The notes under the pieces were generated by a model. The model saw nothing but the letters and a program-made list of their open reading frames with translations. It had not been told where the DNA came from and ran no database searches. Position numbers and translations under genes: made by a program. Positions 7,001 through 48,991 of a stretch of 64,000 nucleotides of DNA are shown here, piece by piece. How positions within the stretch are numbered: the stretch's first letter is position 1; each line of letters starts with the position of its first letter. Origin of the DNA: Branchiostoma floridae (taxonomy: Eukaryota > Chordata > Leptocardii > Amphioxiformes > Branchiostomatidae). Location of the stretch: contig NC_049993.1 of the NCBI RefSeq assembly GCF_000003815.2, forward strand, positions 16,698,897 through 16,762,896. Reading direction: 5' to 3'.

Positions 7001-9391
7001 TATTTTAAGAAAAGCATGTCCAGATGATGCCATGACGCATGCCTAGCTGGGTCAAAAATGCATTTCATTAATTCTTTTTTTCTTCTGAAATGTCTGACCA
7101 TTTCCAAAATCATATCCAGTTGCCTGAGTAACTGCTTTTTGGCATATCTTATTACCTGGATGTCTAACCTTCATCAACGTTTTGCCAACCTTGTTTCTGC
7201 AGAAGACGCGCCTGGGCAAGTACGTGAACGATGTTCGGCGGAAGACAAACAACGCCGACCTGGCCAAGCGGCTCAAACAGCTGGTCAGGATCTGGCAGAA
7301 ACTCATCATCGCCGGGGACATCCAAGCACAGGACACGCCTAGCAACCAGGGCGTCAGTCCCAAGGTAGGAGTTTATTTGTTTGTGTGGCCTTGCTCATTA
7401 CATAATGTACCTGTTCTGTATTGTTAGAATTTTTGATCATGTAAGTACAAGCTGAATACGGATCTGACAGGTTAGAGCCATTGCAGTATCACTTTCAATA
7501 CTGTTATGTCAGCTTTTTAACTCTTCTCCAGAAGTATCGTCATTTGTCAGTTTTTCAAATGTTCCTTCCCCCTTTGGAGGTCCCGTGTTTGAGGAGAGGC
7601 ACATCTCGAACACGTTAAAGATCCCACCACACTTATCTAAAAGAGCAGGGGTCCTTCCCGTCGCGAGTGGGTCAAAACCTACAGCCCTTTGTAGCACCTA
7701 TGACATTTATTGTAGCACCTATGACATTTATTGTTGCACCTATGGCATTTACTGTAGTATTGAGGTCACCTGAGTGGCAGCTAGCTCCAGACACTTGTGA
7801 TTTAGCCCCGCCTATTGTAATCTCCTCGCAATTCAGTCCTGGTTGCTAAAAGAGAGCAGTTGGCCCACCCAATAACAATAACCACTAACGATCACTTTCT
7901 GCCCCGCAGATCGCCATGACCCGACCCGGAATCTCCCCCAAACTGCCCAGCAAGCTGGCGGAGGTTCGACCCGGGGCCAGCTCCAGCGCCAGCGCAGTCC
8001 TAGAGAAAACAAATTCAGCCAACCGCAAGCGCAGAAAAGTAAGCCTGGACGGGGACGAGGGGCCCAAACCCAAGCGACCGGCGACCCCGAGCCAGGCTGT
8101 TCCCATCAACGGTTTGCCCCGCGGACGTGACAGCCCCGTGCCCAGCCCTCTCGCCGGTAGAAGGAACCACAGTCCCGCCGCCGCCCTCAACAGGAAACCG
8201 CAAAGTCCCGCGTTCGCTGACAGGAGACCCAACAGCCCTGCCGTGGCCAGTACCAAAGTTAGATCCAACAGTCCGGCGCTGGGCGCAAGAAAACTCACCC
8301 CAGGTAGTCCCGCAGTGGCTGGAAGCTTACGGAAAACTTCCAGCCCTGTTGGGAACCTAAGAAAGACATCTAGCCCTGTTGGGAGCCTAAGAAAGACATC
8401 TAGCCCTGTTGGAAGCATAAGAAAGACATCTAGCCCTGTTGGAAGCATAAGAAAAACCACTAGCCCTGTCCAATTTGTACCGAGCGGACAGTTGTTACAT
8501 GACAGCAATACATTTGACACCCCCCCACCGACGCCCGATCTCACGTCAACCAAATCCCTCCCCACGAACATTACAAGTGCCAGTGTCGGGTCTCCCAGAC
8601 CGCTGAGTTTAGCCCTACCACCGGAGTTAGCGAACAGAGACTGTGGCTCCAAAATGAAAGAGCTGGAAGAGCTGTCCCCAGTGTTGCCAGTAAAACTTCG
8701 ACTCCCCAGTACGTCGGAAACCCTCAGTGCTTCGGAACCTCCAGGTGCCCAATCCTCGGGGAAGGCGGAAGGCAAGAAAAAGTCCAAATCTTCCAAGAAG
8801 AAGGACAAATCCAAGAACAAGGAGCCGGTCGAAGATTCCCCCGAGGAAAGTTCGTCCGAGGTCAAACCCGCCAAGAGGGTCAAGCTAAAGCAGCGGTCGT
8901 TGACCTTTGACCCTGTGACCAGACAAATCGTGCCCAACGTTCCACAGAGTCCAGCGGTGACGGTCAGCGTTTCTTACGACAACGAGTTCGTCCCCCGACC
9001 GGTCGACCTCGGGCCGTTCCCCTTTCCCGCCGCCTTGGCGGCAAGAGGCCAGTATCCAGGCTTGTCACGTGACTTGCAGCAGCCAATGGCGGCCGGCAAG
9101 TCATCGCACAGTAGTATCTCTCGACCAATCACGGACGAGGCTGCTAGAGAGCGAGAACTGAAGCGGCAACGCGCGCTCGAGCTGATCAAGGCTGCGGAGG
9201 GCGAGCCGAGACCCGGCGTGGATCGGCCGGTTTCTGACGAAGACTTGCAGAGACTGAGCAGCGAGCAGTGGCCAGGAGTCAGCGGCTGTTTCGATGATAA
9301 TGGAGACTGGCGCGACTGGACGGACTGCTGTGAGAAAGGGTCGTGTGAGGACGGGTTGTTACAAGTTCTGCCTTATGTCATTCTAGACTAG
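1097..9391 (+). CDS. MED26: Mediator complex subunit 26 (MED26)
   Basis: MED26 is a metazoan Mediator subunit that helps recruit elongation complexes to RNA polymerase II in the nucleus. Four exons join in frame to 593 aa (human about 600): 1097-1159, 5518-5592, 7203-7364 and 7910-9391, each flanked by AG/GT and all in phase 0. Residues 1-90 form a TFIIS N-terminal (LW) helical domain, with QQIKDRLLQAID in exon 1, SALEKTTMTKDALE in exon 2 and RIWQKLI in exon 3. The middle is disordered, basic and rich in Ser-Pro. The C-terminal conserved block contains LKQRSLTFDPVTRQI (Mediator-binding region in the family), then EQWPGVSGC, and ends LPYVILD, matching the vertebrate end LPYVCLD. Introns carry a Mutator-like element, several MITEs and SINE pieces. 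The 3'UTR limit is not clear. Confidence 0.96.
1999..3185 (+). repeat. tRNA-derived SINE interrupted by a transposon
   Basis: The head at 1999-2070 looks like a tRNA: an A-box-like tggcacaatcgg and a B-box-like gttcgaaccc, ready for RNA polymerase III. The body continues gatcttgtgcccttgggaaa to 2102, is cut by the element at 2103-3131, and resumes at 3132 with actttacacgactttcctc. The same body lies at 53770-53960 without the tRNA head. It is inside MED26 intron 1. Confidence 0.75.
2103..3131. mobile_element. Mutator-like non-autonomous DNA transposon (1,029 bp)
   Basis: Terminal inverted repeats of about 88 bases begin taatctccaagcagatcttg. The right copy at about 3043-3131 is the reverse complement with a few changes. 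A perfect 9-base direct repeat, actttacac, flanks it (2094-2102 and 3132-3140). Long inverted repeats with 9-base target duplications are the mark of Mutator-like (MULE) elements. No transposase is recognised inside. It sits in a SINE within MED26 intron 1. Confidence 0.85.
3818..3990. mobile_element. Old relative of the CTGTAAATGCA MITE family
   Basis: It starts ctgtaactgttcacggtttt and ends gtgaacacaaagtgaattac followed by ag. The layout matches the 5685-5892 family (gttcgcggttttcgcggtg), but CpG positions are decayed to TpG/CpA. Confidence 0.5.
4905..5005 (-). repeat. SINE 3' tail fragment
   Basis: The block catcatcatcattggtcgac ... ccccttacggggtgacatac is the reverse complement of the tail of the SINE at 61593-61930 (gtatgtcaccccacaagggg, then atgatgatga). 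It is a fragment in MED26 intron 1. Confidence 0.6.
5044..5389. mobile_element. MITE family A copy 1 (TIR ggctcgaaata, tgcaggt core)
   Basis: The ends are ctcgaaatac and gtatttcgagccctg, inverted. The inside repeats the words acctgcac and tgcaggt in both orientations. It lies in MED26 intron 1, 128 bases before exon 2. Its left tip is mutated, so no clear target duplication remains. Confidence 0.75.
5685..5892. mobile_element. MITE family C copy 1 (TIR ctgtaaatgca, CpG-rich)
   Basis: The ends are ctgtaaatgcagaaatg and cttaaatgcatttacag, flanked by TA. The inside has gttcgcggttttcgcggtga and its complements. It begins 93 bases after MED26 exon 2. A TA target and this tip suggest a Tc1/mariner-like origin, which is inference. 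Confidence 0.8.
6105..6469. mobile_element. MITE family B copy 1 (same TIR, gtgcaccca core)
   Basis: It starts cagggctcgaaatactgggt and ends gaatttcgagccctg. The inside is dominated by gtgcaccca words. The direct repeat ttaga flanks it (6100-6104, 6470-6474). It shares terminal repeats with family A but not the core. It lies in MED26 intron 2. Confidence 0.85.
7088..7180. mobile_element. MITE family D fragment ending at MED26 exon 3 acceptor
   Basis: It contains catatccagttgcctgagta and actgctttttggcatatctt, then tacctggatgtctaacctt, one arm of the palindromic family at 16012-16241 and 18598-18796. It ends about 20 bases before the acceptor of MED26 exon 3, so its ctaac word at 7164-7168 lies where a branch point is expected. 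Confidence 0.65.
7574..7690 (+). repeat. SINE body fragment
   Basis: ggaggtcccgtgtttgagga ... ttcccgtcgcgagtgggtca matches the bodies at 53838-53950 and 61593-61650. Intron 3 of MED26. Confidence 0.6.
7690..7755 (+). repeat. 21-bp tandem repeat, three units
   Basis: The unit gtagcacctatgacatttat plus t is repeated three times, the last with two changes. It lies in MED26 intron 3. Confidence 0.8.
7910..9391 (+). CDS. MED26: MED26 exon 4 (disordered linker and C-terminal domain)
   Basis: This single large exon encodes residues 101-593. It begins after the acceptor gccccgcag, and the stop codon TAG ends at 9391. It is much more GC-rich than the surrounding introns. It carries many N/S-S-P motifs (NHSPAA, PQSPAF, PNSPAV, SNSPAL), an in-frame 30-bp tandem repeat, a lysine-rich patch near 8760-8830, and the conserved carboxyl end. 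Confidence 0.95.
   Translation: MAMTRPGISPKLPSKLAEVRPGASSSASAVLEKTNSANRKRRKVSLDGDEGPKPKRPATPSQAVPINGLPRGRDSPVPSPLAGRRNHSPAAALNRKPQSPAFADRRPNSPAVASTKVRSNSPALGARKLTPGSPAVAGSLRKTSSPVGNLRKTSSPVGSLRKTSSPVGSIRKTSSPVGSIRKTTSPVQFVPSGQLLHDSNTFDTPPPTPDLTSTKSLPTNITSASVGSPRPLSLALPPELANRDCGSKMKELEELSPVLPVKLRLPSTSETLSASEPPGAQSSGKAEGKKKSKSSKKKDKSKNKEPVEDSPEESSSEVKPAKRVKLKQRSLTFDPVTRQIVPNVPQSPAVTVSVSYDNEFVPRPVDLGPFPFPAALAARGQYPGLSRDLQQPMAAGKSSHSSISRPITDEAARERELKRQRALELIKAAEGEPRPGVDRPVSDEDLQRLSSEQWPGVSGCFDDNGDWRDWTDCCEKGSCEDGLLQVLPYVILD
8312..8470 (+). repeat. 30-bp coding minisatellite in MED26
   Basis: Four near-identical 30-base units (8342-8371, 8372-8401, 8402-8431, 8432-8461) are flanked by degenerate partial units. 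Each encodes ten residues of the form SPVGSLRKTS. The unit length keeps the frame. Each unit holds a Ser-Pro and a basic RKTS patch, so it is a candidate phosphorylation repeat. Confidence 0.9.
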
Positions 9392-35420: not shown

Positions 35421-36943
35421 TTGCATTCCTTCGCAATGTTGCAAAGCCAACTCAAGATAATATAAACTAAGATTGCAAATATCAATTGTAGTATTTTTTG
35501 CTTTTGAAGTTTAAGTTGGAACGTCTGCATTCTGTTTCAGTTGCCTGCATGCTAATAGCACATGTATGTATAATGCTGCAAAGAAGAAAGAAGTATCTGC
35601 ACTGTATTTGTAATGTTCCAAGTATTTACTGCCAAAAGAGCCTGAATTTTGTACTTTTCCACCCAGAAGACATTTTCTTATCTTATTTGGGCTTGACTGG
35701 TACTTCATATTTTTGACGGTGTTTGATGTATGTGATATGAGGTGTTAGGAAATTGTACCAGTCCTGCAAAATGTGGAAGATAGAACGATGACCCTTGACT
35801 CCAAGAATGAGTAAGCATTTAATCATGTTTGTTACCAAGTCCATGACTTATGGCACCATTTTCCTTATTTGGAGTCAGGGCTGTCAAGAATCGTCAAGAA
35901 TAAGCGACACATATATGTGCTAACATCTCAAATTTTGATAGAAGAACAAGGGTAGCAAACAGCTGTAGATTGAATGAATCTTATGAACAAAGATTTCTAC
36001 CTGTCAGGTTTCAGAAAACTATCACACATTCACAAACTGCGAATGGACATTTCAAGTGACAGTCATTTACAATTCCAATTTACAAGCTGACTGTGCATAC
36101 TTTTGCAAAATACAAGTCTTTACATCATAAACCTTCTTATCTTTGTAGAACACCTGCCATTTGAGGTGATGTGGGATTTTATGCAGGGTTGTCTGGGATG
36201 GAAATGTGCTTGCTGGGACAAACAAAAATTTCACCCCTTCTGTCCCAAAATGAACTTCAGGACATGAAAAGGATGAAAAGTACTTTCATAAGCTTAATGG
36301 TATTGATCCTGTATGTAAGTAGGCTCAACAAGGACATTTTGTTGTATTGTAATTTGTATGGTACTGAGCTGTAACCTCTCACAGTCATGGGCTGAATTAG
36401 GAGAGTGCCCTTGTAGTATAACTGGTTAGGACAGTTACCTCAGACGACCTGGGCAGATACATTTTTACTATTTTCGCGTCACCTGAGATGACCTCAGTAC
36501 AAGGTGCAGCCTTGATGCTGCAGATTTTTATCAAAAAGTTTGGTATAATTATTTTATGGCTCTGTTATAACCTGTTCATACTCATGGCAAGTTGGGTTCT
36601 TCAATCCCTATCCTTAAGGTTTGAATTTGTAACTACATATACTAAATATATAAGACAGGTTGGTTGGAAATTGAAGCTCCAATCTATATTCCAAAAAAGG
36701 CAGTAAAAACCATTAATTGAAATTTAAACTGCTTGCATCATGTCATTGTACTATCACGGTAGTGTAACTATCCTATCTTCATCTTCACAACTCTATGTCA
36801 TAATAATGATTTAATTGTTTCCTATGATATTCCCTGTTGGTTTTGATGAGCTGAATATTAGGTATGCAATGACTTGCACATCTGTATTGACATTTCGTCA
36901 CAGACGATTTGACTTGACCCATGTTGTCTCTGTCTCGCCTCAG

Positions 36944-36997
36944 GTACGGATGCCGCTGTCATTGATCTCCTGTTGCCATAGATACGGTTGCTAAGCG
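36944..36997 (+). other. KEAP1 5'UTR part of first coding exon
   Basis: A strong acceptor, ctctgtctcgcctcag, ends at 36943, implying an upstream non-coding exon that was not located. An in-frame TAA at 36992-36994 precedes the ATG by one codon, which fixes the start. Confidence 0.6.
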
Positions 36998-39900
36998 ATG
37001 GCGGAGGACGAGCCCATGGATCCCACGGGGCCCAACTTCGAGGTGGAGTGCCCTCGAAGGAACGGGACGTGTCGGACGTTCACGGATGGCGGGCACGCAG
37101 AGGAGGCGCTCGGAGTGATGAACATGCTGAGGGAACACCAGCAGCTGTGCGACGTCACACTCAAGGTGATGGGATGAAAGGTTTACTGTAAATGCATTTA
37201 AGTTCTCGGGGATTTAATTTCGCGGTAGCTAAAAAAAGGACTTTTTGCGATGGTTTTAAGTATGCGGTAACACCACAGACTGCAGTCTAATACTATAGTA
37301 GAAAAATGTTCGCGGTGATTTTAAGTGAAGGTGAAGTGGTCACCGCGAACATTAATCCGCCGCGAACATTTCTGCATTTACAGTATACACTTCACTCAGG
37401 GCTCGAAATACCACCTGCATATGCAGGTTAGTGCAGGTAACATTGGAGCTGTGCAGGTATTTCTGGTGTCTACCTGCACCTAACCTGCACTGGTCCCTGC
37501 ACTGGGTTAACCGTTTTATACATAAATGTCCTATGATGTAGGTGTATGTTTTGTTATTAGCTGCATTGACTGTGCTGGGTCAGGTAGAGAATGGGACTGT
37601 TCTTGAATCTGTTGGTTCTAGATCTGATTGTGTTTTTGTCTGGTTTCTCTTCTCCTGCTCTAGGTCACACACCAGGACAAGAAGGAATCATTCCTCACGC
37701 ACAAGGTTGTCCTGGCGGCCGCCAGCCCCTACTTCAAGGCCATGTTCACCGGCGGGCTGAAAGAGTGTAAGATGCAGGAGATACCCATCGAAGGGGTGCA
37801 CCCGTGTGTCATGAACAGGCTGATCGAGTTCGCGTATACCTCACGGATAACGTTAACGGACATGACCGTGCTCCACATTTTGACTGCGTCTGTGATGTTC
37901 CAGATGACCAGAGTAGCGAAGCTGTGTTGTGAGTTTCTGGAGGACCAGTTGGACCCCAGTAATGCCATCGGGATCGCCAACTTCGCCCAGGAGCTGGGCT
38001 GTAAGAAACTAGAGGAGAAGGCCAGGGAGTTCATCTACACAAACTTCTGTGAAGTCTGTGAGAGCGAGGAGTTCATGATGCTGTCTGCTTGCCAACTTCT
38101 ACACCTGATCAACAGAGACGAACTCAACGTGCGCTGCGAGTCGGAAGTCTACAAGGCGGCGATGCGGTGGGTCACGTATGACTTGGACGAACGAAAGCAG
38201 TGTATATATCCGCTGTTAGAAGCCGTGCGATGTCACAAACTGAACCCTGAGTTTATCAAGAAGAGTTTATCCTTCTGTCCCATTGCTACCAGAAACCCCG
38301 AGTGTAACGAATACTTGTGTAAGATCCTACAGGACTTGACACTACACAAGCCCATGTGTTTGAAAGTCAAGCAAAGGACTCCCCTGGCCCCCCACGTGAT
38401 TTTCATCGCCGGGGGCTACCTGAGACAGTCGCTAGCGACGATGGAAGCGTACAATCCAGAGAAGAACACGTGGACAAAGCTAGCCGACCTGCCCATGCCC
38501 AGAAGTGGGCTAGCTGCTGCTGTGGTACACGGGTTCTTCTATGTCATAGGTAAGACAATTGGAGTTATAGATGTATTGTGGAGGTGATACCTTCAATATT
38601 ATTAGTAGATTTCCCAAATTTGCGATGAATAGCTGATGACTGTACAGTCAGAATTGTGCCAGTGACCATTTTCTTCAACATCAAGTGCTCTAACTAACTT
38701 CTAAGTGGTCACAAGACACAGGTTTGACTTTACACACAAAGTTTGATTCAAATTTGGAGAAATGTGCATTTTAAACTTTAACTTGAAAGTTCATCTGTGT
38801 TAGTAGTAGTCACTATTGAACTAGGTAAACTGTAATATCCAACACAAAAATTTACAACTAAACAGCACCAGTCTTTGTCATGGAATGAACAATCCGTGAC
38901 GTCATGACAGCAGTGGATTGTTCATTTCTTGACAAAGACTGGTGCTGTTCAGTCGAAAATTTGGGTCAGTCCAATTTTTGTGTTGGATATTACTGTTTAA
39001 CTAGTTCAATAATCATTTTAAACTTAAGTTTCATTCTTCCTCCTAACGGTACAGGAGGGCGTAACAACTCTCCGGATGGTAACATGGACTCCAACTCTCT
39101 GGAGGGGTACAACCCGTACACCAACAGCTGGCAGTCCTACACACCCATGTCCATCCCCAGGAATCGCGTGGGGGTCGGGGTCATCGATGACTACATCTAC
39201 GCTGTGGGAGGGTCGCAGGGCTGCATGCACCACAACACCGTGGAAAAGTGAGTTCCTTTCTAATCCTTTCTTATTATTCCGAAAGCAATACATAACACAC
39301 TGTAGTTCAAACAGCAGAAAGCAAACAAACAATACGTACAAAGAAATACCTTAGGCTTAAAACATCGCAGAGAAGTGAGTTCCTTTTTTCTTTTTTTTAT
39401 CATTTTAAAAGTAACATACTTTAATGGTTCAGACAACAGAAAGCAAACAAACAAACTTGAGTACTACAAAGAAATACCTTAACATCGTAGAGAAATGAGT
39501 TCCTTTTTCCTTTTTTTATTATTCCAAAAGTAATATATATATTGCCGCCAAAAAGCAGTGACTCAAACAACTGGAGTGACTCAAAACGGTCAGACGTTTC
39601 CAATAACATCCTTTATCTTTCATCAGTGTTACTGGAGAGATCTTTTTGGAGAGAGTTTTTCTAGCCTAGTCATGAAAGGATTGTATAATTTATTCAAAAG
39701 CTGTCCTAGATATCTTTTAGTTGTAAAATCTCATTGACAGTCCAACAGGAAAGTAGATTTAAATAGATGGTTACTGTGTACGTATACGTTGCAGACTAGA
39801 ATGTCCATGTTTTTAGAAAAAGTAAAAGATTGTTCCTAATTGCCTGACATAGCAAAATGGCACACATAATCTTTTTGGATCTATTTAAGAACATGGATTG

Positions 39901-42900
39901 TATTTGTATAGTGGTGGGCTATGCAAATAGTAGGTGTTTGTCCGTATTTTGTTGTTGTACGTTTTTGCTGTCTCACTGTGTTGCGTGAAGCCTGCTATAC
40001 ATACAGGCCTTTTCAAGGTCTCACTCTCACCACAGAGTGCTGATTCTGCTGACTAATTGTTGTTTCAGTTTCTGTTGGACGCCAGAAACAGTCTTTTCTC
40101 AAATAAGTAGAAGCCCTCAGGAAATGATTTTATTTCCTTACCAAGGCTAGAATCCTCCTGAAATAAAATCTTAAAAATAATGCTAGAATTTCATTTTGTT
40201 TTATTCTGATCCAACCAAGTTTGATCACTGATGTGCACACCCTTTTGCCATGAAGCATAGTACTTTCCCATTGAAAGATTGCAAAACCCTCCTAGTAAAT
40301 AACAGCTTGCCTGAGGTACCATTTATTTTTTTGCAAGTCACTGCAGTAAATCTGAAAAACAAATTGTTGGTTATCGTTGTGATTTTTGCGACATGTACAA
40401 GTGAGCAGTTTTCACATGGGGACATTGTTGAAAGTGATGTCAAACAGCTACATTGTACAGTACATTACTGTACTAAGCCAGTTATTTGCAAAGTCAAATT
40501 GAACATATGATATGAAGAAATAACAAAAGATATGAAAATGTAGGCCATATTTTGCCCATGCAAACATTGAAATCTAATTTGTTTATGATGTATGTATTAT
40601 AAGCAGCCGTCATATAGGCTAAAACAGCAGTTCCGTACATTAAGTCAATATTGTTAAGTAGAAGCTACACATTACAAAAGGATTACTGATTGACTTTGGA
40701 CATCGCACACTACGCTGTTCCGTACTTCAGCTATGTTATGTGCTGAAGGTGTGGCGCTGAGCTTTTGGCTGACAGCTATTTTATTGTCCACTTCTTAAGG
40801 GCAACAACCGCAAGTTCAGACATGTGCATATTGGGGTTTCAGAGCTCTGACAGAAGGGTACTTATTAAGGGGATTCAAATGCTTGAAGTTGAACGGTCAA
40901 CCTGTGTGCTACATGTAGGTGTTCAAGAAGCTTGAGACTTTGACACTTGATTAAGATATCTATTACTTTGCATACATATACATGTAGTACATCACTAGTT
41001 TTCCTGCATTTCTGTAGATACCACATCACATATTTACCCTTTGCTACTATATGGCAATCATTGGGGAAAATTTTGTAATTGCTGCTGCTACTCTTACAGT
41101 ATGCTCGACACTAAACTATAAGAGTTTAGCACATTTGGTGTAATTAAGCATGGTGCATTTACATGGCAAGATGCCACACCCTGAGTATATATGCATGCAA
41201 GTGTTGAATTTAAAGAGCAAACAAAGTTAACGCCTTTAACTTAAAGTCATTCAACTTTACCAACATTTAGTAAGCTATGTATATGATTTGTGTGTTTGTT
41301 GATAATTATCTTTACACTACAAAGTACACTTCCCTGTTTATGTCTATACTTCCTTGTCTTTATCAAATTTGTGAAAAGAAGTAGCTGCATAAACAATAAA
41401 CCACAGAAACCCTCATGTCATGGTCTATTCCTAAAGATGCAGAGTATGCTGTATCTGAGACATACCATTATACACGTGGGGGTGTTACACCTACGTGTAC
41501 AACCTGTTGTATGCAGGTGACTAAGCATTTTGCACATTGACAGACTACTATAATTGTTCTCCTGCTACATACAGTTAGTAAAAGAATACCGAAATGTCAA
41601 AGTGGCATATGAGAGATGGAGTTAGCCTTCCTGCTAGCTTGGCCGGAGGCCTAATTTCCTCACAAGTTAAGTTAAAAGTTAAACCCTTCCCGCGCCTGAT
41701 GGCGCATAGGGCAGCGCCCATCTCTGTTTCCTTAGCCCTGGGCTACACAGCGCAAACACTACAGCAAGGGGCTAGACCATTGGTAGTGGTGTGTGTTCAA
41801 CTTCCATACTCTTTCCCTAATGCTGAGTGCTAAGCAGAGAAAGCAGCATGTACAAATGTACCATTTTTAAAGTCTTTGGTATGACTCGGCCGGGCATTAA
41901 ACTCACGACCTACCGAATGCATGGCGAACACTCTACCCACTCGGCCATTGCACCGGCCATTTCGAATCTTCACAAGGCCACATGTATATTAATCAATGCC
42001 ACCATACCTTATAATTAATTTTTGCTGGAAAGTAACAGAGTGAGCAGGAGACAATAAAGCATTGTGAAGTAGAGATTCTTTACTAGCCAACCTTAGCACT
42101 GCCAGTCTGGTGTCATACTTCATGCCAGCTAGCTAGCAAGTTGTTATGTTGACAGAAAGGATTATAAGAAAAGTAGTCTTCATGGCTACCTTGTCCCCCA
42201 ATGACCAGGAGGTCAAGGGACTAGGTAGGAAAGTAGGTAGTCTCATACATGCAGTTACCTGGCATACCTTATCTTAAACAATCTGACTCAACAATTCTAG
42301 TAGAAATTAGATGGTATGGTCTAGGGTGAAAATGGGATTTTTAGTAAAAGTGAATGAATGATCATGAAAGAATACAAATATCTACATGGTCTTTTTTTTA
42401 TTATCTTAAAGTATTTTTTTAACGAGTTTACTCAGTGGAAGGCCATTGACCACTTCTGGGCACCAAACTATGCTCACTGTAGCAGAATTTCTTCTCCCTA
42501 AGTCAACATAGAGTTTTGGCAAGTTCGACTGACTGACAGATTTATTTCCCCATGATTGTTGTAGGTATGATGCTAACCAGGACAAGTGGACGACAGTGGC
42601 TCCCATGAAGACCAGACGTATTGGTGTGGGTGTGGCTGTACTCAACAGGTCAGTATTGGAAACAAAAATGTTGCATAGCCTTTTTTGCAAGTGCAGTTTG
42701 TTTACAATTACAGTTAGTTATTATTAGACTAGTGTGGCTGTGCTGAATGGGTCAGTGTTGAAACACAACCACAATTTGTTAAAAGCATTGTGTTTTTATT
42801 TATTTATCTATTTGCTAATATTAATTTGTAATATACATGTGTATACATGTACAACTTGCTAAGTAAACTATGCACTGAAGTTGTTCGATCTTTTCCAGTG

Positions 42901-45900
42901 AGGCATTTTGATAGTTTTTATGCAAGACGGTTTCTAGTTTTAAGGTACTGTCTAGTGCAACGGGTTGTTGAGTAAATAAATTTGCAAAGGGATACATGTT
43001 GACAGTAGGATTAATAATACATCATTGTGAGATGTTGAATAGCTTTAAGTTGATATCCTTATAACTTAGAAAAGTTGGGGCTTTTAGTTTCCCTCTGCTT
43101 CCAAAAAAGAAGTCAAACCCAACCTGTTTAGAAATAGCCAACTCTAGTATTACAGTAGAATATTTTTCGTAACTGTCCATCGTCACTTGTATGTCTACTA
43201 TGTTTATACCATGTACTTGCAATTAGCCCTCGCGCACGAACTTGGAAATAAACTTCTTCTGTATAACTGTTGACTGCAGACTGCTGTACGCTGTGGGAGG
43301 GTTTGATGGAACGACCCGTCTGAGATCCATGGAGTGTTACCACCCCGAGAACAACGAGTGGCAGTTTGTCACCTCCATGAACGTGCCCAGGAGTGGAGCA
43401 GGTAATCAAGAAGTCTGTTTTCACTTATGTGCACTATGTATCTGGAACAGTCTACCTCCAGACATACACACCGCACAGAACTCTGGCTTACTTCATATAA
43501 TAAGAGACTCTCAAAGTAACAGAAATGACCAAAATGAACAGACAAAATTTTAATCTAATAGAGAATAAAGATACATAGTCACAAAGTTATAAAGAATGTA
43601 AAATATCTTAAGTCAGTACTGTTTCTATCATGAAATATATGGTTGTGTCCATGTTGTAAACAGCTTGATTCAAATGTTTTAAATGTCTGACAAATTGGTG
43701 AAAAATTCTTCTTTTGACATGAAGTGTCCTGTTGTAAAAGTCCCTTAGCAGCAGGGCTTTAGCCAGCTCGAAATTTCTTTCCGTCAGCCAGTTCCTATTG
43801 TCGCGAAAACCGCGTAACACTATTCCGGGAGTTAGAAACACTGAACTGAGGCCTTGAAAAACGGGTCTTTAATGAGATTATCGTATGCGAAAGGGCGCTG
43901 ACACACTTTGTCAACAATAATAACAATAGCAAAACAAACAGTGTGTGGCTTTTACGGGCGTGGATGGCGTCCCCAAGCCGCCTGTAGCTTCCACCAAGGA
44001 TTTTTGTCCGTCAAGGTTGACGGATTGGTTTTAGAATTTTCCGTCACACGCAGCAAATTTCCGTCAATTGACGGAAAAACGGACGCTAGCTAGAGCCCTG
44101 GTTAGCAGTATGAATTTTGACGACATAGTAAACTAAACTGAAATCCATTTTCCTGCCTGCAGGTGTAGTAGCCCAGGACCATCACATCTATGCCATCGGG
44201 GCTTATAACATTTCTTGTTTCACTGTGACTGCAGGTGTAGTAGCCCAGGACCACCACATCTATGCCATCGGGGCTTATAACATTTCTTGTTTCACTGTGA
44301 CTGCAGGTGTAGTAGCCCAGGACCACCACATCTATGCCATCGGGGGTTATAACATTTCTTGTTTCACTGTGACTGCAGGTGTAGTAGCCCAGGACCACCA
44401 CATCTATGCCATCGGAGGTTATAACATTTCTTGTTTCACTGTGACTACAGGTGTAGTAGCCATCGGGGGTTATAACATTTCTTGTTTCTCCATGACTGCA
44501 GGTGTAGTAGCCCAGGACCACCACATCTATGCCATCGGAGGTTATAACATTTCTTGTTTCACTGTGACTGCAGGTGTAGTAGCCCAGGACCACCACATCT
44601 ATGCCATCGGAGGTTATAACATTTCTTGTTTCACTGTGACTGCAGGTGTAGTAGCCCAGGACCACCACATCTATGCCATCGGAGGTTATAACATTTCTTG
44701 TTTCACTGTGACTGCAGGTGTAGTAGCCCAGGACCACCACATCTATGCCATCGGAGGTTATAACATTTCTTGTTTCACTGTGACTGCAGGTGTAGTAGCC
44801 CAGGACCACCACATCTATGCCATCGGAGGTTATAACATTTCTTGTTTCACTGTGACTGCAGGTGTAGTAGCCCAGGACCACCACATCTATGCCATCGGGG
44901 CTTATAACATTTCTTGTTTCACTGTGACTGCAGGTGTAGTAGCCCAGGACCACCATAGTAGCCATCGGAGGTTATAACATTTCTTGTTTCACTGTGACTG
45001 CAGGTGTAGTAGCCCAGGACCACCACATCTATGCCATCGGAGGTTATAACATTTCTTGTTTCACTGTGACTGCAGGTGTTGTAGCCCAGGACCACCACAT
45101 CTATGCCATCGGGGGTTATAACATTTCTTGTTTCACTGTGACTGCAGGTGTTGTAGCCCAGGACCACCACATCTATGCCATCGGGGGTTATAACATTTCT
45201 TGTTTCACTGTGACTGCAGGTGTAGTAGCCCAGGACCACCACATCTATGCCATCGGGGGTTATAACATTTCTTGTTTCACTGTGACTGCAGGTGTTGTAG
45301 CCCAGGACCACCACATCTATGCCATCGGGGGTTATAACATTTCTTGTTTCACTGTGACTGCAGGTGTAGTAGCCCAGGACCACCACATCTATGCCATCGG
45401 AGGTTATGACGGGATGAGTCAGCTGAACTCCGTAGAGAAGTATGACATCAACGCCAACACCTGGGAGTTTGTCTCCTCCATGAAGAAACAGAGAAGCGCC
45501 CTGTCTGTCACGTCATTCGGCGGCAAGATATACGCACTAGGTTCGTGTGGATTTGTTATAGTATATCAGTTTTCTACTCTTTCACACTTTGTAGTAGTTT
45601 CAACTCTCATGATTCCACCATGTGTCATAATATATATATAACATATCTGTTATGTACTATACTTCATGTATAACTAGCCTGGGTACCGTCCGGGTATTAG
45701 TTCGCTTGGTGGCGATTCCAGTTAATGAGCGAATTAAGGAATGAGTGCTTGTTAGATGACAACAGACCCACCAACAAGCGGATGGAGGGAGTTTCGGGTG
45801 TTGGAAAGCCTGTTCGAATGAGCGCTTGAACCCATTCCTCAATGTATTTAATATAAGGCCATATGAGAAATCTTACCACTCTAACTCTGAGAGAGAGAGA

Positions 45901-46189
45901 AATATCTATTTTTCAAAAAACTGTTCAATGTGATGGTTATGAAGACTGGAATTGTACTTGCATTTAAAATGCCTTCTTATGTATCTATCATCTTTATTGT
46001 AAATGTGTGTTTGATGGACCATTCTGTGTTGCTCCCCCAGGAGGCTATGATGGGACCGACTTCCTGGAGTCAGTGGAAGTCTACGACCCTCAGACCAACG
46101 AGTGGACAATCTGTGCCAGCATGAGTAGCGGGAGGAGCGGCTCTGGTGCCGCCGTCGGCATCGAGCCGTGCGCTAAAGCACCGTCATGA
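36998..46189 (+). CDS. KEAP1: KEAP1, redox-sensing adaptor of the CUL3 ubiquitin ligase
   Basis: KEAP1 holds the transcription factor NRF2 for CUL3-dependent ubiquitination and releases it when its cysteines are oxidised. Seven exons join in frame to 592 aa (human 624): 36998-37165, 37664-38549, 39055-39247, 42565-42648, 43280-43401, 45364-45540, 46041-46189. BTB about 30-150 ([27 protein letters not shown]), BACK about 155-260 ([28 protein letters not shown]), then six Kelch repeats with GG doublets. The NRF2 pocket residues of the human protein all have matches: Y334, S363, R380, N382, N414, R415, R483, S508, Y525, Q530, S555, Y572, F577, S602. This identifies KEAP1 rather than a generic KLHL. 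Of the sensors, C273 and C288 are kept (C246, C261 here), while C151 is replaced by Thr124. Confidence 0.96.
37186..37383. mobile_element. MITE family C copy 4, reversed
   Basis: It runs from ctgtaaatgcatttaag to cgaacatttctgcatttac and ag, flanked by TA on both sides, in the opposite orientation to copies 1-3. It starts 20 bases after the donor of KEAP1 exon 1. Confidence 0.85.
37397..37575. mobile_element. MITE family A copy 3, truncated
   Basis: It starts cagggctcgaaataccacc and follows the 48992-49335 copy through ttgttattagctgcattgac, then stops with no far terminus. It ends about 90 bases before KEAP1 exon 2. Confidence 0.75.
37664..38549 (+). CDS. KEAP1: KEAP1 exon 2 (BTB, BACK, first Kelch blade)
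   Basis: This exon of 886 bases encodes residues 57-351, starting [20 protein letters not shown] and ending FFYVI before the split Gly codon. It is the largest exon and much more GC-rich than its introns. Cysteines present but absent from the human positions include those in LKECKMQEI and VHPCVMNR. Confidence 0.96.
39236..39541 (+). repeat. Tandem repeats carrying copies of the KEAP1 exon 3 donor
   Basis: The genuine donor is aa|gtgagttcc at 39248. The last dozen exon bases plus the donor and about 110 intron bases recur twice: gagaa|gtgagttcc at 39375 and gagaa|atgagttcc at 39495. Shared inner words are cagaaagcaaacaaac and acaaagaaatacctta. The second donor copy is intact; the third has lost GT. 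Confidence 0.85.
39545..39640. mobile_element. MITE family D, fragment
   Basis: gccaaaaagcagtgactcaa and ggtcagacgtttccaata match the left half of the family. It follows directly on the duplicated donor repeats in KEAP1 intron 3. Confidence 0.6.
41660..41965 (-). repeat. tRNA-derived SINE, type 2 (better copy)
   Basis: The - strand start gccggtgcaatggccgagtg then ggtagagtgttcgcc holds an A-box match (tggccgagtgg). ggtcgtgagtttaatgcc is a weaker B box. Past the head it shares the gtatgactcggcc and aagttaagttaaaagtt words with 25335-25567. KEAP1 intron 3. Confidence 0.65.
43752..44100. mobile_element. MITE in KEAP1 intron 5
   Basis: cagggctttagccagc and gctagctagagccctg are inverted ends. ttagcag occurs on both sides. 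The interior has ttccgtca and tgacggaa words in both orientations. It ends about 60 bases before the exon 6 repeat array. Confidence 0.75.
44163..45363 (+). repeat. 17 tandem copies of the KEAP1 exon 6 acceptor and exon start (72-bp unit)
   Basis: Each 72-base unit is the first 39-40 bases of exon 6 (gtgtagtagcccaggaccac ...) plus a 32-base intron end (ttcttgtttcactgtgactg and cag). Unit starts: 44163, 44235, 44307, 44379, 44451, 44502, 44574, 44646, 44718, 44790, 44862, 44934, 45004, 45076, 45148, 45220, 45292. The eighteenth start, 45364, leads into the real exon. Unit 5 is 51 bases (in-frame deletion); unit 12 is 70 bases and breaks the frame. Variants (cggggctt, cgggggtt, cggaggtt; gtgttgtag) are mixed along the array. 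Confidence 0.97.
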
Positions 46190-48991
46190 CCTTTGCTCTT
46201 TGACCCGACTTCCTGTGGGTCAGAGTTCAACTAGGGTCAGTTACACCTGCGTTATTGTTGATAGCATATATGTATCATTTATCAGGGAGAATGTTGTGTT
46301 TTTTAAATGATTTGTGAACACAGAAGAACACCAGCTTGCTGCTTGTGAATACTTTATATTATTGATAATTGCTCTTTCCAATGCAAGTTTCTTTCTGAGT
46401 GATTATAACAATACAGTCAGGGTTGAGTATCAAATTCTTCAAGGATGACACGCAGTGGCTCAAATAAATCATTTCAGAATAAGGTAGCATCTGCTAGGCG
46501 TTGGCAATTGAAATCCGAAACAATCATACACAGGCAGTGACTTCACTATAATTGCATAGAATTTCGGACCCTTACACCTGAATTTGGTTCTAATTCAACT
46601 GCTAAAATGTTACTTTTAACATTGCTGCCAAAATCTGGGATTTTTTTTAGGCCTGGGGTCTTAAACAGCCAGGTCCAGAAAGCCCTGTTTGTGACATGCA
46701 GAATTTTTGCTCATAATGTCATTAACAGTCAGATTGCTATGGCCACACAATATGATTTATTAAGGTCATGGGATTAAAAAAGCTTATTGCTATCTTGAAA
46801 TATCCAAAAGAAACAGAGAGTTTGAGGGGGAAGTCTATGGTTTACAGAGGGTGACCAGAGTCAGATGCCAGTATTTCTCCCTTACTTCTGTTTTTATGAT
46901 GTCCTCTTAGAATTTGATATGAAAATATCAGAGAACGAAGGAATAAAAATTGGTGTGGCCTAAAGTAGCCGTTTGGCACCACAAATTGGTAATGGGGTTA
47001 GTCAAGAGGAAGAAGGTTTACAATGACATTTTCTATTGTTGTGTCTGTGAAGTTGGCAACAAATATCTACACATACTACACATACAAGTATATATCTTTG
47101 ATGTCCAAGTGCCATATGGAATGCATGTTTCAAAGCAAATACAGATGTTGGCCTGTGATGCTGGTGTTGTATGCTGCTGTGACTATGTGTGTCCTATGCT
47201 GTGAGTGATGCAACTCTATACAATGTCATATAAACTAACATTATCTGTATAAGTTTATCTGTATAACTAACTTTATCTGTAGAAACTTACAGTCGCCTGC
47301 GTCGCAGCCGACCGATGATGATGATGATGATCTGTATCTATACTAGTCGGTATAACCACCCTTCTACATAACACTACTGTAACAATGTTCTTGGCAGTGG
47401 CATGTTGAAAAAGTTTTCCTCCAAAAGTAGAGCAAAAAGAAGCACCCAACAATCCATGGGGAGAGGAAACTACGTACATAACCAAGAAGAAACTTTCCAT
47501 ATGAATGCTTAATACGGTGGAAACTTTTAAGAAGAAAAAGAAAGAGATTAGTTTATCATGCAAAGAGGAAAATCAACCTGATTTAATGGAAGACGTCCTT
47601 TTAATGGCGCAGAGCGAATACAAGAGTGGAAACGAAAAGATGTAATTTGCTTTGCAATGCAATATTTTATGACATGATTTGAGTAAACTGTCAACCGTTT
47701 TACTACAACAACAATAAGACATTCCCTCCTTGTGGGGAAGTTTTCAGAATGACTCATTGGCTTGTTTCTATGGAAATAAATCCTGTCAACTGTGAGAGGA
47801 GAAATAGTTGGTTCTCTTTTTTGGGAGGGGGCAGTAAAAAAAGCAGATATCCACTTTTAAATTGAAAAGTCGTCCTTGTGATTAGATTTGTTAACAGTGC
47901 CACACATGCACAGTCTAGCGTTTAGAACTATTGCTATGAGATACATGATATATAAGTCTACAATGCTAGGTGTAATGTTAGTACAGTATGGGTGTCCAAA
48001 TTGTGTACTGTGTTGTGTTAGTATGAGAATAGCAACTGCCATTTGGTGTTTTACAAAGAGGGAACTTGTGTGTAGAAAAAAGTGTAGACGCAGCTTCTGC
48101 AAGCTCATAGTGAAATTTGTACCAATATGACTGTCTTATATTGCAGAGCATTTATATAATATGTGTATCATACAAAGAAAAGATATTTGAATTTAAACCA
48201 AAGTTAAGTAATGTTATTACTGTATATTATTAGGCATATTCAGTGCAGTTGTAATTTTTTCATGTTGATAAATGTTTTGATAAGTTTACTAATGACATTG
48301 TACACTTTTTATGGTTGAATTCCTTTTAAGATCTATTTATTTTTCCTCAATTCAGGTTGATATGTACTGTTGATTACATTATGTTTACTTCCAGACGTTC
48401 TAAAAAAGTCAAACTCTCATAATTCCAAAACTCAAAAAATGCCACATTGATTTAAATTAAGACAGCATGACCGAGTCTTTCTCAATGATGTTTTGAACAC
48501 CTGGAAATCCCATACTTTGAGGATTACTGATCTCTTTCATATTCATTCTTTTCAGTTAAGATAGATGGTTCTAAATTGTTCTAAATGAAGAGATATTTGT
48601 ACCAATACTTTCCCAATGTTTCCAACATATCCAGATAGGTTCAAACATGTTCAAACTTTCATTTTCAACCGTTTGAACAATTTAGAACTTTAGTGACTGA
48701 ACTATTCTTTTACTTAGAATAGTTCAAACTTAATACAAATATTATTTCAAAAACCTCTCGGTGACTCGGAATAGACTCTGCTATCTTTTTAACATGGCAA
48801 CCTGTTGGAATTACGAAAGTTGATGTTATATATGCCTGCAACAGATGAGAAGTAAATTGTATGAACAGTTTTTATAAGATACAATATTCAGCGTCGTAAT
48901 TGTAATGTGCAAGAAACTGCTGTACTGACTACTGTTATAGTGACTATACATTCTTTATCAAATGTTACTCCATGCTGTATGTATGTGATTA
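46190..48991. other. KEAP1 3' flank
   Basis: AT-rich sequence, probably with the KEAP1 3'UTR. aataaa occurs at about 46931 and 47773. A short fragment gcctgcgtcgcagccgaccg with atgatgatga at 47287-47330 resembles a SINE tail. No exon recognised. Confidence 0.4.

What the first reader, a model, noticed from the sequence alone, without database searches (positions are those of the whole stretch)
44163..45540. KEAP1 exon 6 acceptor copied 17 times in tandem, each unit a usable 3' splice site
Seventeen 72-bp units (two shortened) each contain a full polypyrimidine tract, CAG and the first 13 codons of exon 6. Seen directly: every unit joins CAG to GTGTAG, so each has an acceptor next to a GT, the layout of recursive (ratchet) splice sites known from long fly introns. 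The unit is a multiple of three and open, encoding a 24-aa Kelch-like peptide ([20 protein letters not shown] plus VTAG). The acceptors of units 13-17 would add 1 to 5 in-frame blocks within a Kelch blade. Acceptors 1-12 run into the frameshift in unit 12. The array could therefore tune KEAP1 isoforms, slow splicing or feed nonsense decay. Inference: it arose by slippage on the shared gg.ggttat word.
Basis: partly seen in the sequence, partly recalled or inferred. Interest (0 to 1): 0.88.

Follow-up and report, generated by a model that had tools for sequence, protein, structure and literature searches.

The report
Amphioxus KEAP1 splice-boundary repeat ("mirage")
In what looks like the Florida amphioxus genome, the piece of DNA that marks the start of one exon of the stress-sensor gene KEAP1 has been copied 17 times in a row; this is a large new example of a repeat type already known in amphioxus, probably spliced out harmlessly rather than used as a switch.

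Summary
Window 44163-45363 carries 17 tandem copies (15 of 72 bp, one 51, one 70) of the last 28 nt of KEAP1 intron 5 plus the first 44 nt of exon 6. The authentic exon follows at 45364, giving 18 CAG|GT acceptors. The frame claims are right. Such boundary repeats are a described amphioxus phenomenon, "mirage" minisatellites, which RT-PCR suggests do not disturb splicing (PMC3087553, PMC3902484). This genome shows arrays matching two published globin mirages and a class-III ADH one as positive controls. I also found others: a kinase, a sorbitol dehydrogenase-like gene, two RecQ-like helicases and KEAP1 exon 3. Rate: 3 of 70 exon loci in families not chosen for known mirages. Ratchet splicing is unlikely: the intron is 1,962 nt and the embedded donor is weak. 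One lead survives: acceptor mirages read AG|GT in 6 of 8 cases against 9 of 46 other exons (post hoc Fisher P 0.004), so units may be tolerated because each is a removable GT-AG block. New member of a known kind; no RNA or population data could be tested.

The parts
44163..45363 (+). array of 17 tandem copies of the intron 5 / exon 6 boundary (15 x 72 bp, one 51 bp, one 70 bp)
45364..45540 (+). authentic KEAP1 exon 6 (starts inside an 18th, partial copy of the unit)
   Evidence: exons 5-7 joined at this acceptor match KEAP1 chains over 142 query and 142 chain residues (table)
43280..43401 (+). KEAP1 exon 5, donor CAG|GTAATC
43402..45363 (+). KEAP1 intron 5 (1,962 nt) holding the array
44451..44501 (+). 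unit 5, 21-nt in-frame deletion
44934..45003 (+). unit 12, net 2-nt loss that breaks the frame of all upstream units
39234..39539 (+). second, older repeat in the same gene: exon 3 donor boundary present about three times at 120-127 bp spacing, degenerate
   Evidence: 95 of 110 aligned bases identical between authentic and second copy
43752..44100 (+). 349-bp mobile element (hAT-like ends CAGGGC...GCCCTG, flanking duplication 7 of 8 bases), ending 62 bp before the array
37664..38549 (+). KEAP1 exon 2 (BTB, BACK, first Kelch motif)

Best explanation
This is a coding-boundary minisatellite of the amphioxus 'mirage' kind. A tandem duplication copied the end of KEAP1 intron 5 together with the start of exon 6. 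Unequal exchange or replication slippage then expanded and homogenised it to 17 copies (inferred from unit identity falling with distance). In RNA the spliceosome most likely joins exon 5 to the last acceptor (45364), which defines a normal 177-nt exon, and removes the whole array with the intron. Low-level use of other acceptors would give in-frame insertions (acceptors 13-17) or nonsense-decay substrates (1-12). Shown: anatomy, frames, a single locus in the assembly, homogenisation, and the same architecture at several other genes in this genome. Inferred: mechanism of expansion, choice of the last acceptor, lack of function.
For: Anatomy and frames. Single locus in the genome: 18 hits, all in this array. 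Identity among full units declines with distance (r -0.35, permutation P 0.0065) with 5 neighbouring identical pairs of full units, as expected of local exchange. Published mirages have the same definition (PMC3087553; PMC3902484). Positive controls in this genome: L019 globin, 158 bp x 4.2 at the exon start, matching BflGb6 (150-160 bp published); L015 globin, 157-bp copy of the exon end, matching BflGb9 (157 bp published); L021 class-III ADH, arrays on both sides of one exon (59 bp x 6.9 and 33 bp x 9.8). Exons 5-7 joined at the last acceptor match KEAP1 chains over equal lengths; every other acceptor adds residues or a stop.
Against: No RNA data were available, so use of the last acceptor is not shown. 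Acceptors 2-18 have near-identical upstream tracts, so sequence alone does not say why the last should win. The unit is open and divisible by three, which fits a coding role, though chance would allow it. The Kelch part alone (exons 5-7) scores higher in sum with designed Kelch proteins, KLHL3 (303 bits) and KLHL12 (291) than with KEAP1 (265), where whole-sequence scores add several stretches; the KEAP1 name rests.
Confidence: 0.82

Rival explanations
1. Functional isoform or dosage device: choosing among acceptors tunes KEAP1 by inserting 24-aa blocks in a Kelch blade or by sending transcripts to nonsense decay.
For: All 18 acceptors keep CAG|GT; acceptors 13-17 give open products, acceptors 1-12 a premature stop.
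Against: Similar arrays at other genes include spacings not divisible by three (59, 143, 157, 158 bp), though 33, 144 and 147 are. Published mirages splice normally by RT-PCR (PMC3087553). The units are a homogenised array; conservation between species could not be examined. The insert would fall right after the GGY of a Kelch motif.
Confidence: 0.08
2. Recursive (ratchet) splicing: each acceptor-GT junction is used in turn to remove the intron stepwise.
For: AG|GT at 18 of 18 acceptors.
Against: The intron is 1,962 nt; [quoted passage not shown] The embedded donor CAG|GTGTAG scores 0.52 bits against 8.63 for consensus (recalled human frequencies). But the gene's own exon 6 donor scores -0.37, so strength alone is not decisive.
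Confidence: 0.03
3. Assembly artefact: copy number or the array itself is wrong.
For: Highly identical units are hard to assemble; a draft version of the BflGb6 mirage was aberrantly assembled according to PMC3087553.
Against: Units carry several private or clustered variants, including two different shortened units. The same architecture recurs at other genes here, two of them at the published unit sizes. The exact copy number remains unverified.
Confidence: 0.05

Closest known systems
Amphioxus 'mirage' minisatellites (Adh3, globins BflGb6 and BflGb9, troponin C, PGBD5)
   Same: Tandem repeats that span an exon-intron boundary, at either splice site; published unit sizes 10-160 bp; AG/GT in many units; high identity inside clusters.
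   Different: New gene (KEAP1). 17 copies, against 3 and 6 repeat units reported for the two haplotypes of BflGb6. A unit that is open in the exon frame.
Intron gain by tandem duplication (Rogers model; potato RdRp case PMC4974935; fission yeast 24-bp AGGT repeats cited there)
   Same: Duplication across an intron-exon boundary, or of an AGGT segment, supplies splice sites for a new removable block.
   Different: Here many copies, and no evidence that a new intron is used.
Recursive splice sites of long fly introns (PMC6110457)
   Same: AG/GT at the acceptor.
   Different: Short intron, weak donor, 18 copies, no junction evidence.

Membership tests
Amphioxus mirage minisatellite | Tandem repeat whose unit spans an exon-intron boundary | tested here: met
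   44 nt exon plus 28 nt intron per unit; exon identity by Pfam and KEAP1 matches. The boundary itself is inferred from protein alignment, not from RNA.
Amphioxus mirage minisatellite | Found in an amphioxus genome | tested here: inconclusive
Globin loci reproduce both published B. floridae globin mirages in unit size and side of the exon. Species is inferred.
Amphioxus mirage minisatellite | High identity and local homogenisation of units | tested here: met
   mean identity 97.9%, decline with distance P 0.0065
Amphioxus mirage minisatellite | Length differences between haplotypes or cells | not testable with these tools
   only one copy of the locus in the assembly
Amphioxus mirage minisatellite | Regular splicing not disturbed | not testable with these tools
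   no RNA data
Recursive splice site | Juxtaposed acceptor and donor motifs around AG/GT | tested here: inconclusive
   AG/GT present at 18 of 18 but the donor motif is weak
Recursive splice site | Very long host intron | tested here: not met
   intron 5 is 1,962 nt
Intron gain by tandem duplication | A duplicated segment is removed as a new intron in mRNA | not testable with these tools
   no RNA data; each unit does run GT...AG

The most novel reading that the evidence does not exclude
Boundary repeats persist in amphioxus genes because they are splicing-neutral by construction. When the acceptor is AG|GT, every duplicated unit runs from GT to AG and can be removed as a mini-intron, whichever acceptor is used first. 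AG|GT acceptors therefore filter which boundary duplications survive and grow. The KEAP1 array, with 18 of 18 CAG|GT and a branch-like TAAC 27 nt upstream of each copied acceptor, would be a clear case and a continuing source of new introns.
Probability: 0.15. Interest if true: 0.65.

Novelty: new member of a known kind. Interest (0 to 1): 0.4.

Why it matters
It suggests that boundary-spanning repeats are not a curiosity of a few amphioxus genes: 3 of 70 exon loci in two families not chosen for known mirages carry one, and KEAP1 has two. A chordate genome with many live duplications across splice sites is a natural test bed for how the spliceosome picks among identical acceptors and for intron gain by tandem duplication. 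The AG|GT excess gives a statistic that a whole-genome scan can confirm or kill.

Tried and rejected
Slippage on the gg.ggttat word: not supported, because the left flank has no matching word at the junction and no better than shuffled similarity. A source elsewhere in the window for the 28-nt intron part: none with fewer than 8 mismatches. Structured RNA in 36000-47000: no Rfam match at gathering score. A second copy or haplotype of the array: none found. Reading the open 72-nt unit as selected: not adopted, since some other arrays here have units not divisible by three (59, 143, 157, 158 bp) while others do (33, 144, 147 bp), so the evidence is neutral. The first paper on Adh3 mirages (PMC117041) is not held, so it is known here only through PMC3087553. 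Searches with PF00501, PF00106 and PF00004 gave match lists but no DNA was fetched from them, so they add nothing to the counts. The huntingtin paper (PMC2206037, passages) speaks of tandem repeats but not of mirages.

Full report
What is there. Window 44163-45363 holds 17 tandem copies of a unit made of 44 nt of exon start and 28 nt of intron end: 15 of 72 bp, unit 5 of 51 bp and unit 12 of 70 bp. At 45364 an eighteenth copy of the exon part runs on into the authentic exon 6, which ends at 45540. Every acceptor reads CAG|GTGT; 15 of 18 go on as GTGTAG and 3 as GTGTTG. Acceptors 13-17 give open products with 5 to 1 extra 24-residue blocks. Acceptors 1-12 run into the 2-nt loss in unit 12 and stop. 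The unit was found nowhere else in the genome: 18 hits, all here.

The gene is KEAP1. The BTB-BACK-Kelch piece (37664-38587) scores 408 bits with full-length KEAP1, 127 with full-length KBTBD2 and 130 with a KLHL3 BTB-BACK construct, with Pfam BTB, BACK and Kelch matches. Exons 5 to 7 joined at 45364 match KEAP1 chains over 142 query and 142 chain residues (table; the residue-by-residue display there was of a designed Kelch protein). In that same call designed Kelch proteins, KLHL3 (303 bits) and KLHL12 (291 bits) outscore KEAP1 (265 bits), since whole-sequence scores add several stretches of these repeats; the name therefore rests. B. japonicum KEAP1 has been described as 593 residues with six Kelch motifs; the word exon does not occur in that paper and its one 'isoform' concerns fly Cnc (PMC11989980, passages).

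History of the array. Five columns vary among the 15 full units, mean identity is 97.9%, six of the units are one identical type, and identity falls with distance along the array (r -0.35, permutation P 0.0065). This is the signature of local exchange or slippage. Unit 5 lost 21 nt between two GCC words. Unit 12 carries a TAGTAGCCATCGG word like that at the unit 5 deletion, which suggests exchange between units (seen in the sequence; the mechanism is inference). The left flank differs from the unit's intron part, so the founding sequence is unresolved. A 349-bp mobile element with hAT-like ends sits at 43752-44100, 62 bp before the first unit. The 40 places listed, this one included, each cover at least 340 of its 349 bases at 91-100% identity; only 40 of 1597 candidates were scored (the hAT label rests on the ends and flanking duplication and is recalled knowledge).

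What it is. [quoted passage not shown] The globin paper states that many, not all, units contain AG/GT signals, that RT-PCR suggests regular splicing, and that clusters are unstable in length. The genome here is unnamed. Its globin loci L019 and L015 carry arrays matching BflGb6 and BflGb9 in unit size and side of the exon, so I infer Branchiostoma floridae. L019 has about 4 copies, where the paper gives 6 and 3 for two haplotypes.

How common. I examined 102 exon loci: all 9 listed globin matches, all 23 ADH_N matches, the top 30 of 129 kinase matches, and 40 of 112 Helicase_C matches (those with an open frame of at most 130 residues and no stop, in list order). Some are exons of one gene, so they are not 102 genes. 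Tandem repeats overlap the matched exon's edge in 7: L015, L019, L021, L038, L072, L074 and L105. An eighth, L018, is doubtful: its repeat begins in the intron and reaches the donor only by eye. In the two families not chosen because of published mirages the count is 3 of 70 (kinase 1 of 30, helicase 2 of 40). 26 of the 30 kinase matches lie in open frames over 300 residues, so few intron edges were tested there and the figure is rough. TRF alone found 0 of 40 in the helicase set; the two there came from self-comparison by BLAST. By-catch outside the matched exons: an acceptor array in a zeta-crystallin-like gene (L031), one at another ADH exon (L021, 647-933), and a degenerate donor array at KEAP1 exon 3 (39234-39539). 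Gene names of these loci other than KEAP1 rest on the Pfam family and on my reading of the peptides; splice sites were placed by eye.

Ratchet reading. The intron is 1,962 nt, while recursive sites are described as apparently restricted to very long fly introns (PMC6110457, passages). The embedded donor scores 0.52 bits, consensus 8.63, the gene's exon 5 donor 3.28 and its exon 6 donor -0.37 (frequencies recalled, human). About 8% of 4,020 GT sites in the window score as high. The GT follows simply from copying one boundary whose exon starts with GT.

An unexpected pattern. Eight acceptor arrays are in hand: KEAP1, L019, L021 main, L021 upstream exon, L038, L072, L105 and L031. At the authentic acceptor six read AG|GT; L021 upstream (AG|CC) and L031 (AG|AA, copy AG|AC) do not. 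Inside arrays it is not universal: one copy in L038 and one in L021 read AG|GC, and the outer copies in L105 have lost the AG. Among other surveyed exons a crude acceptor finder gives 9 of 46 AG|GT (one-sided Fisher P 0.0038; 0.029 if the two published ones, L019 and L021 main, are left out; thresholds 0 and 4 give 10 of 58 and 4 of 25). L019, L021, L026, L038, L072 and L105 were kept out of that background, and it holds some close paralogues (L023 and L028, L084 and L085). KEAP1's own other acceptors read AG|GT in 1 of the 4 I saw. The test was conceived after seeing the data, the sample is small, and the embedded donors are mostly weak (-3.75 to 3.16 bits), so this is a lead. If true, it says boundary duplications survive when each unit is a removable GT-AG block, as in models of intron gain by tandem duplication (PMC4974935, passages).

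Verdict. A real, large, homogeneous mirage minisatellite in KEAP1: a new member of a known kind. The tuning and ratchet ideas are unproven and unlikely. A KEAP1 mirage did not turn up in the searches that I made, which cover open-licence papers only and of which I read passages of a few.

Noticed in passing
window 39234-39539: A second, older boundary repeat in KEAP1: the exon 3 donor region present about three times, degenerate; the third copy has lost the GT.
   Followed up: yes
window 43752-44100: 349-bp mobile element with ends CAGGGC/GCCCTG and a 7-of-8 flanking duplication; 40 near full-length places listed in the genome, this one included.
   Followed up: partly
L105 249-938: RecQ-like helicase exon start repeated about five times at roughly 121-161 bp spacing; the inner copies have AG|GTTATC acceptors.
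   Followed up: partly
L072 1182-1550 and 1819-2398: Kinase exon with boundary repeats on both its acceptor and donor sides.
   Followed up: partly
L021 647-2035: Class-III ADH gene with arrays at the acceptor of one exon and at both edges of the next.
   Followed up: partly
L031 1010-1383: Zeta-crystallin-like gene with an acceptor boundary repeat that lacks AG|GT.
   Followed up: partly
window 8320-8469: 30-bp repeat x 5 inside a long open frame, apparently a coding repeat rather than a boundary repeat.
   Followed up: no
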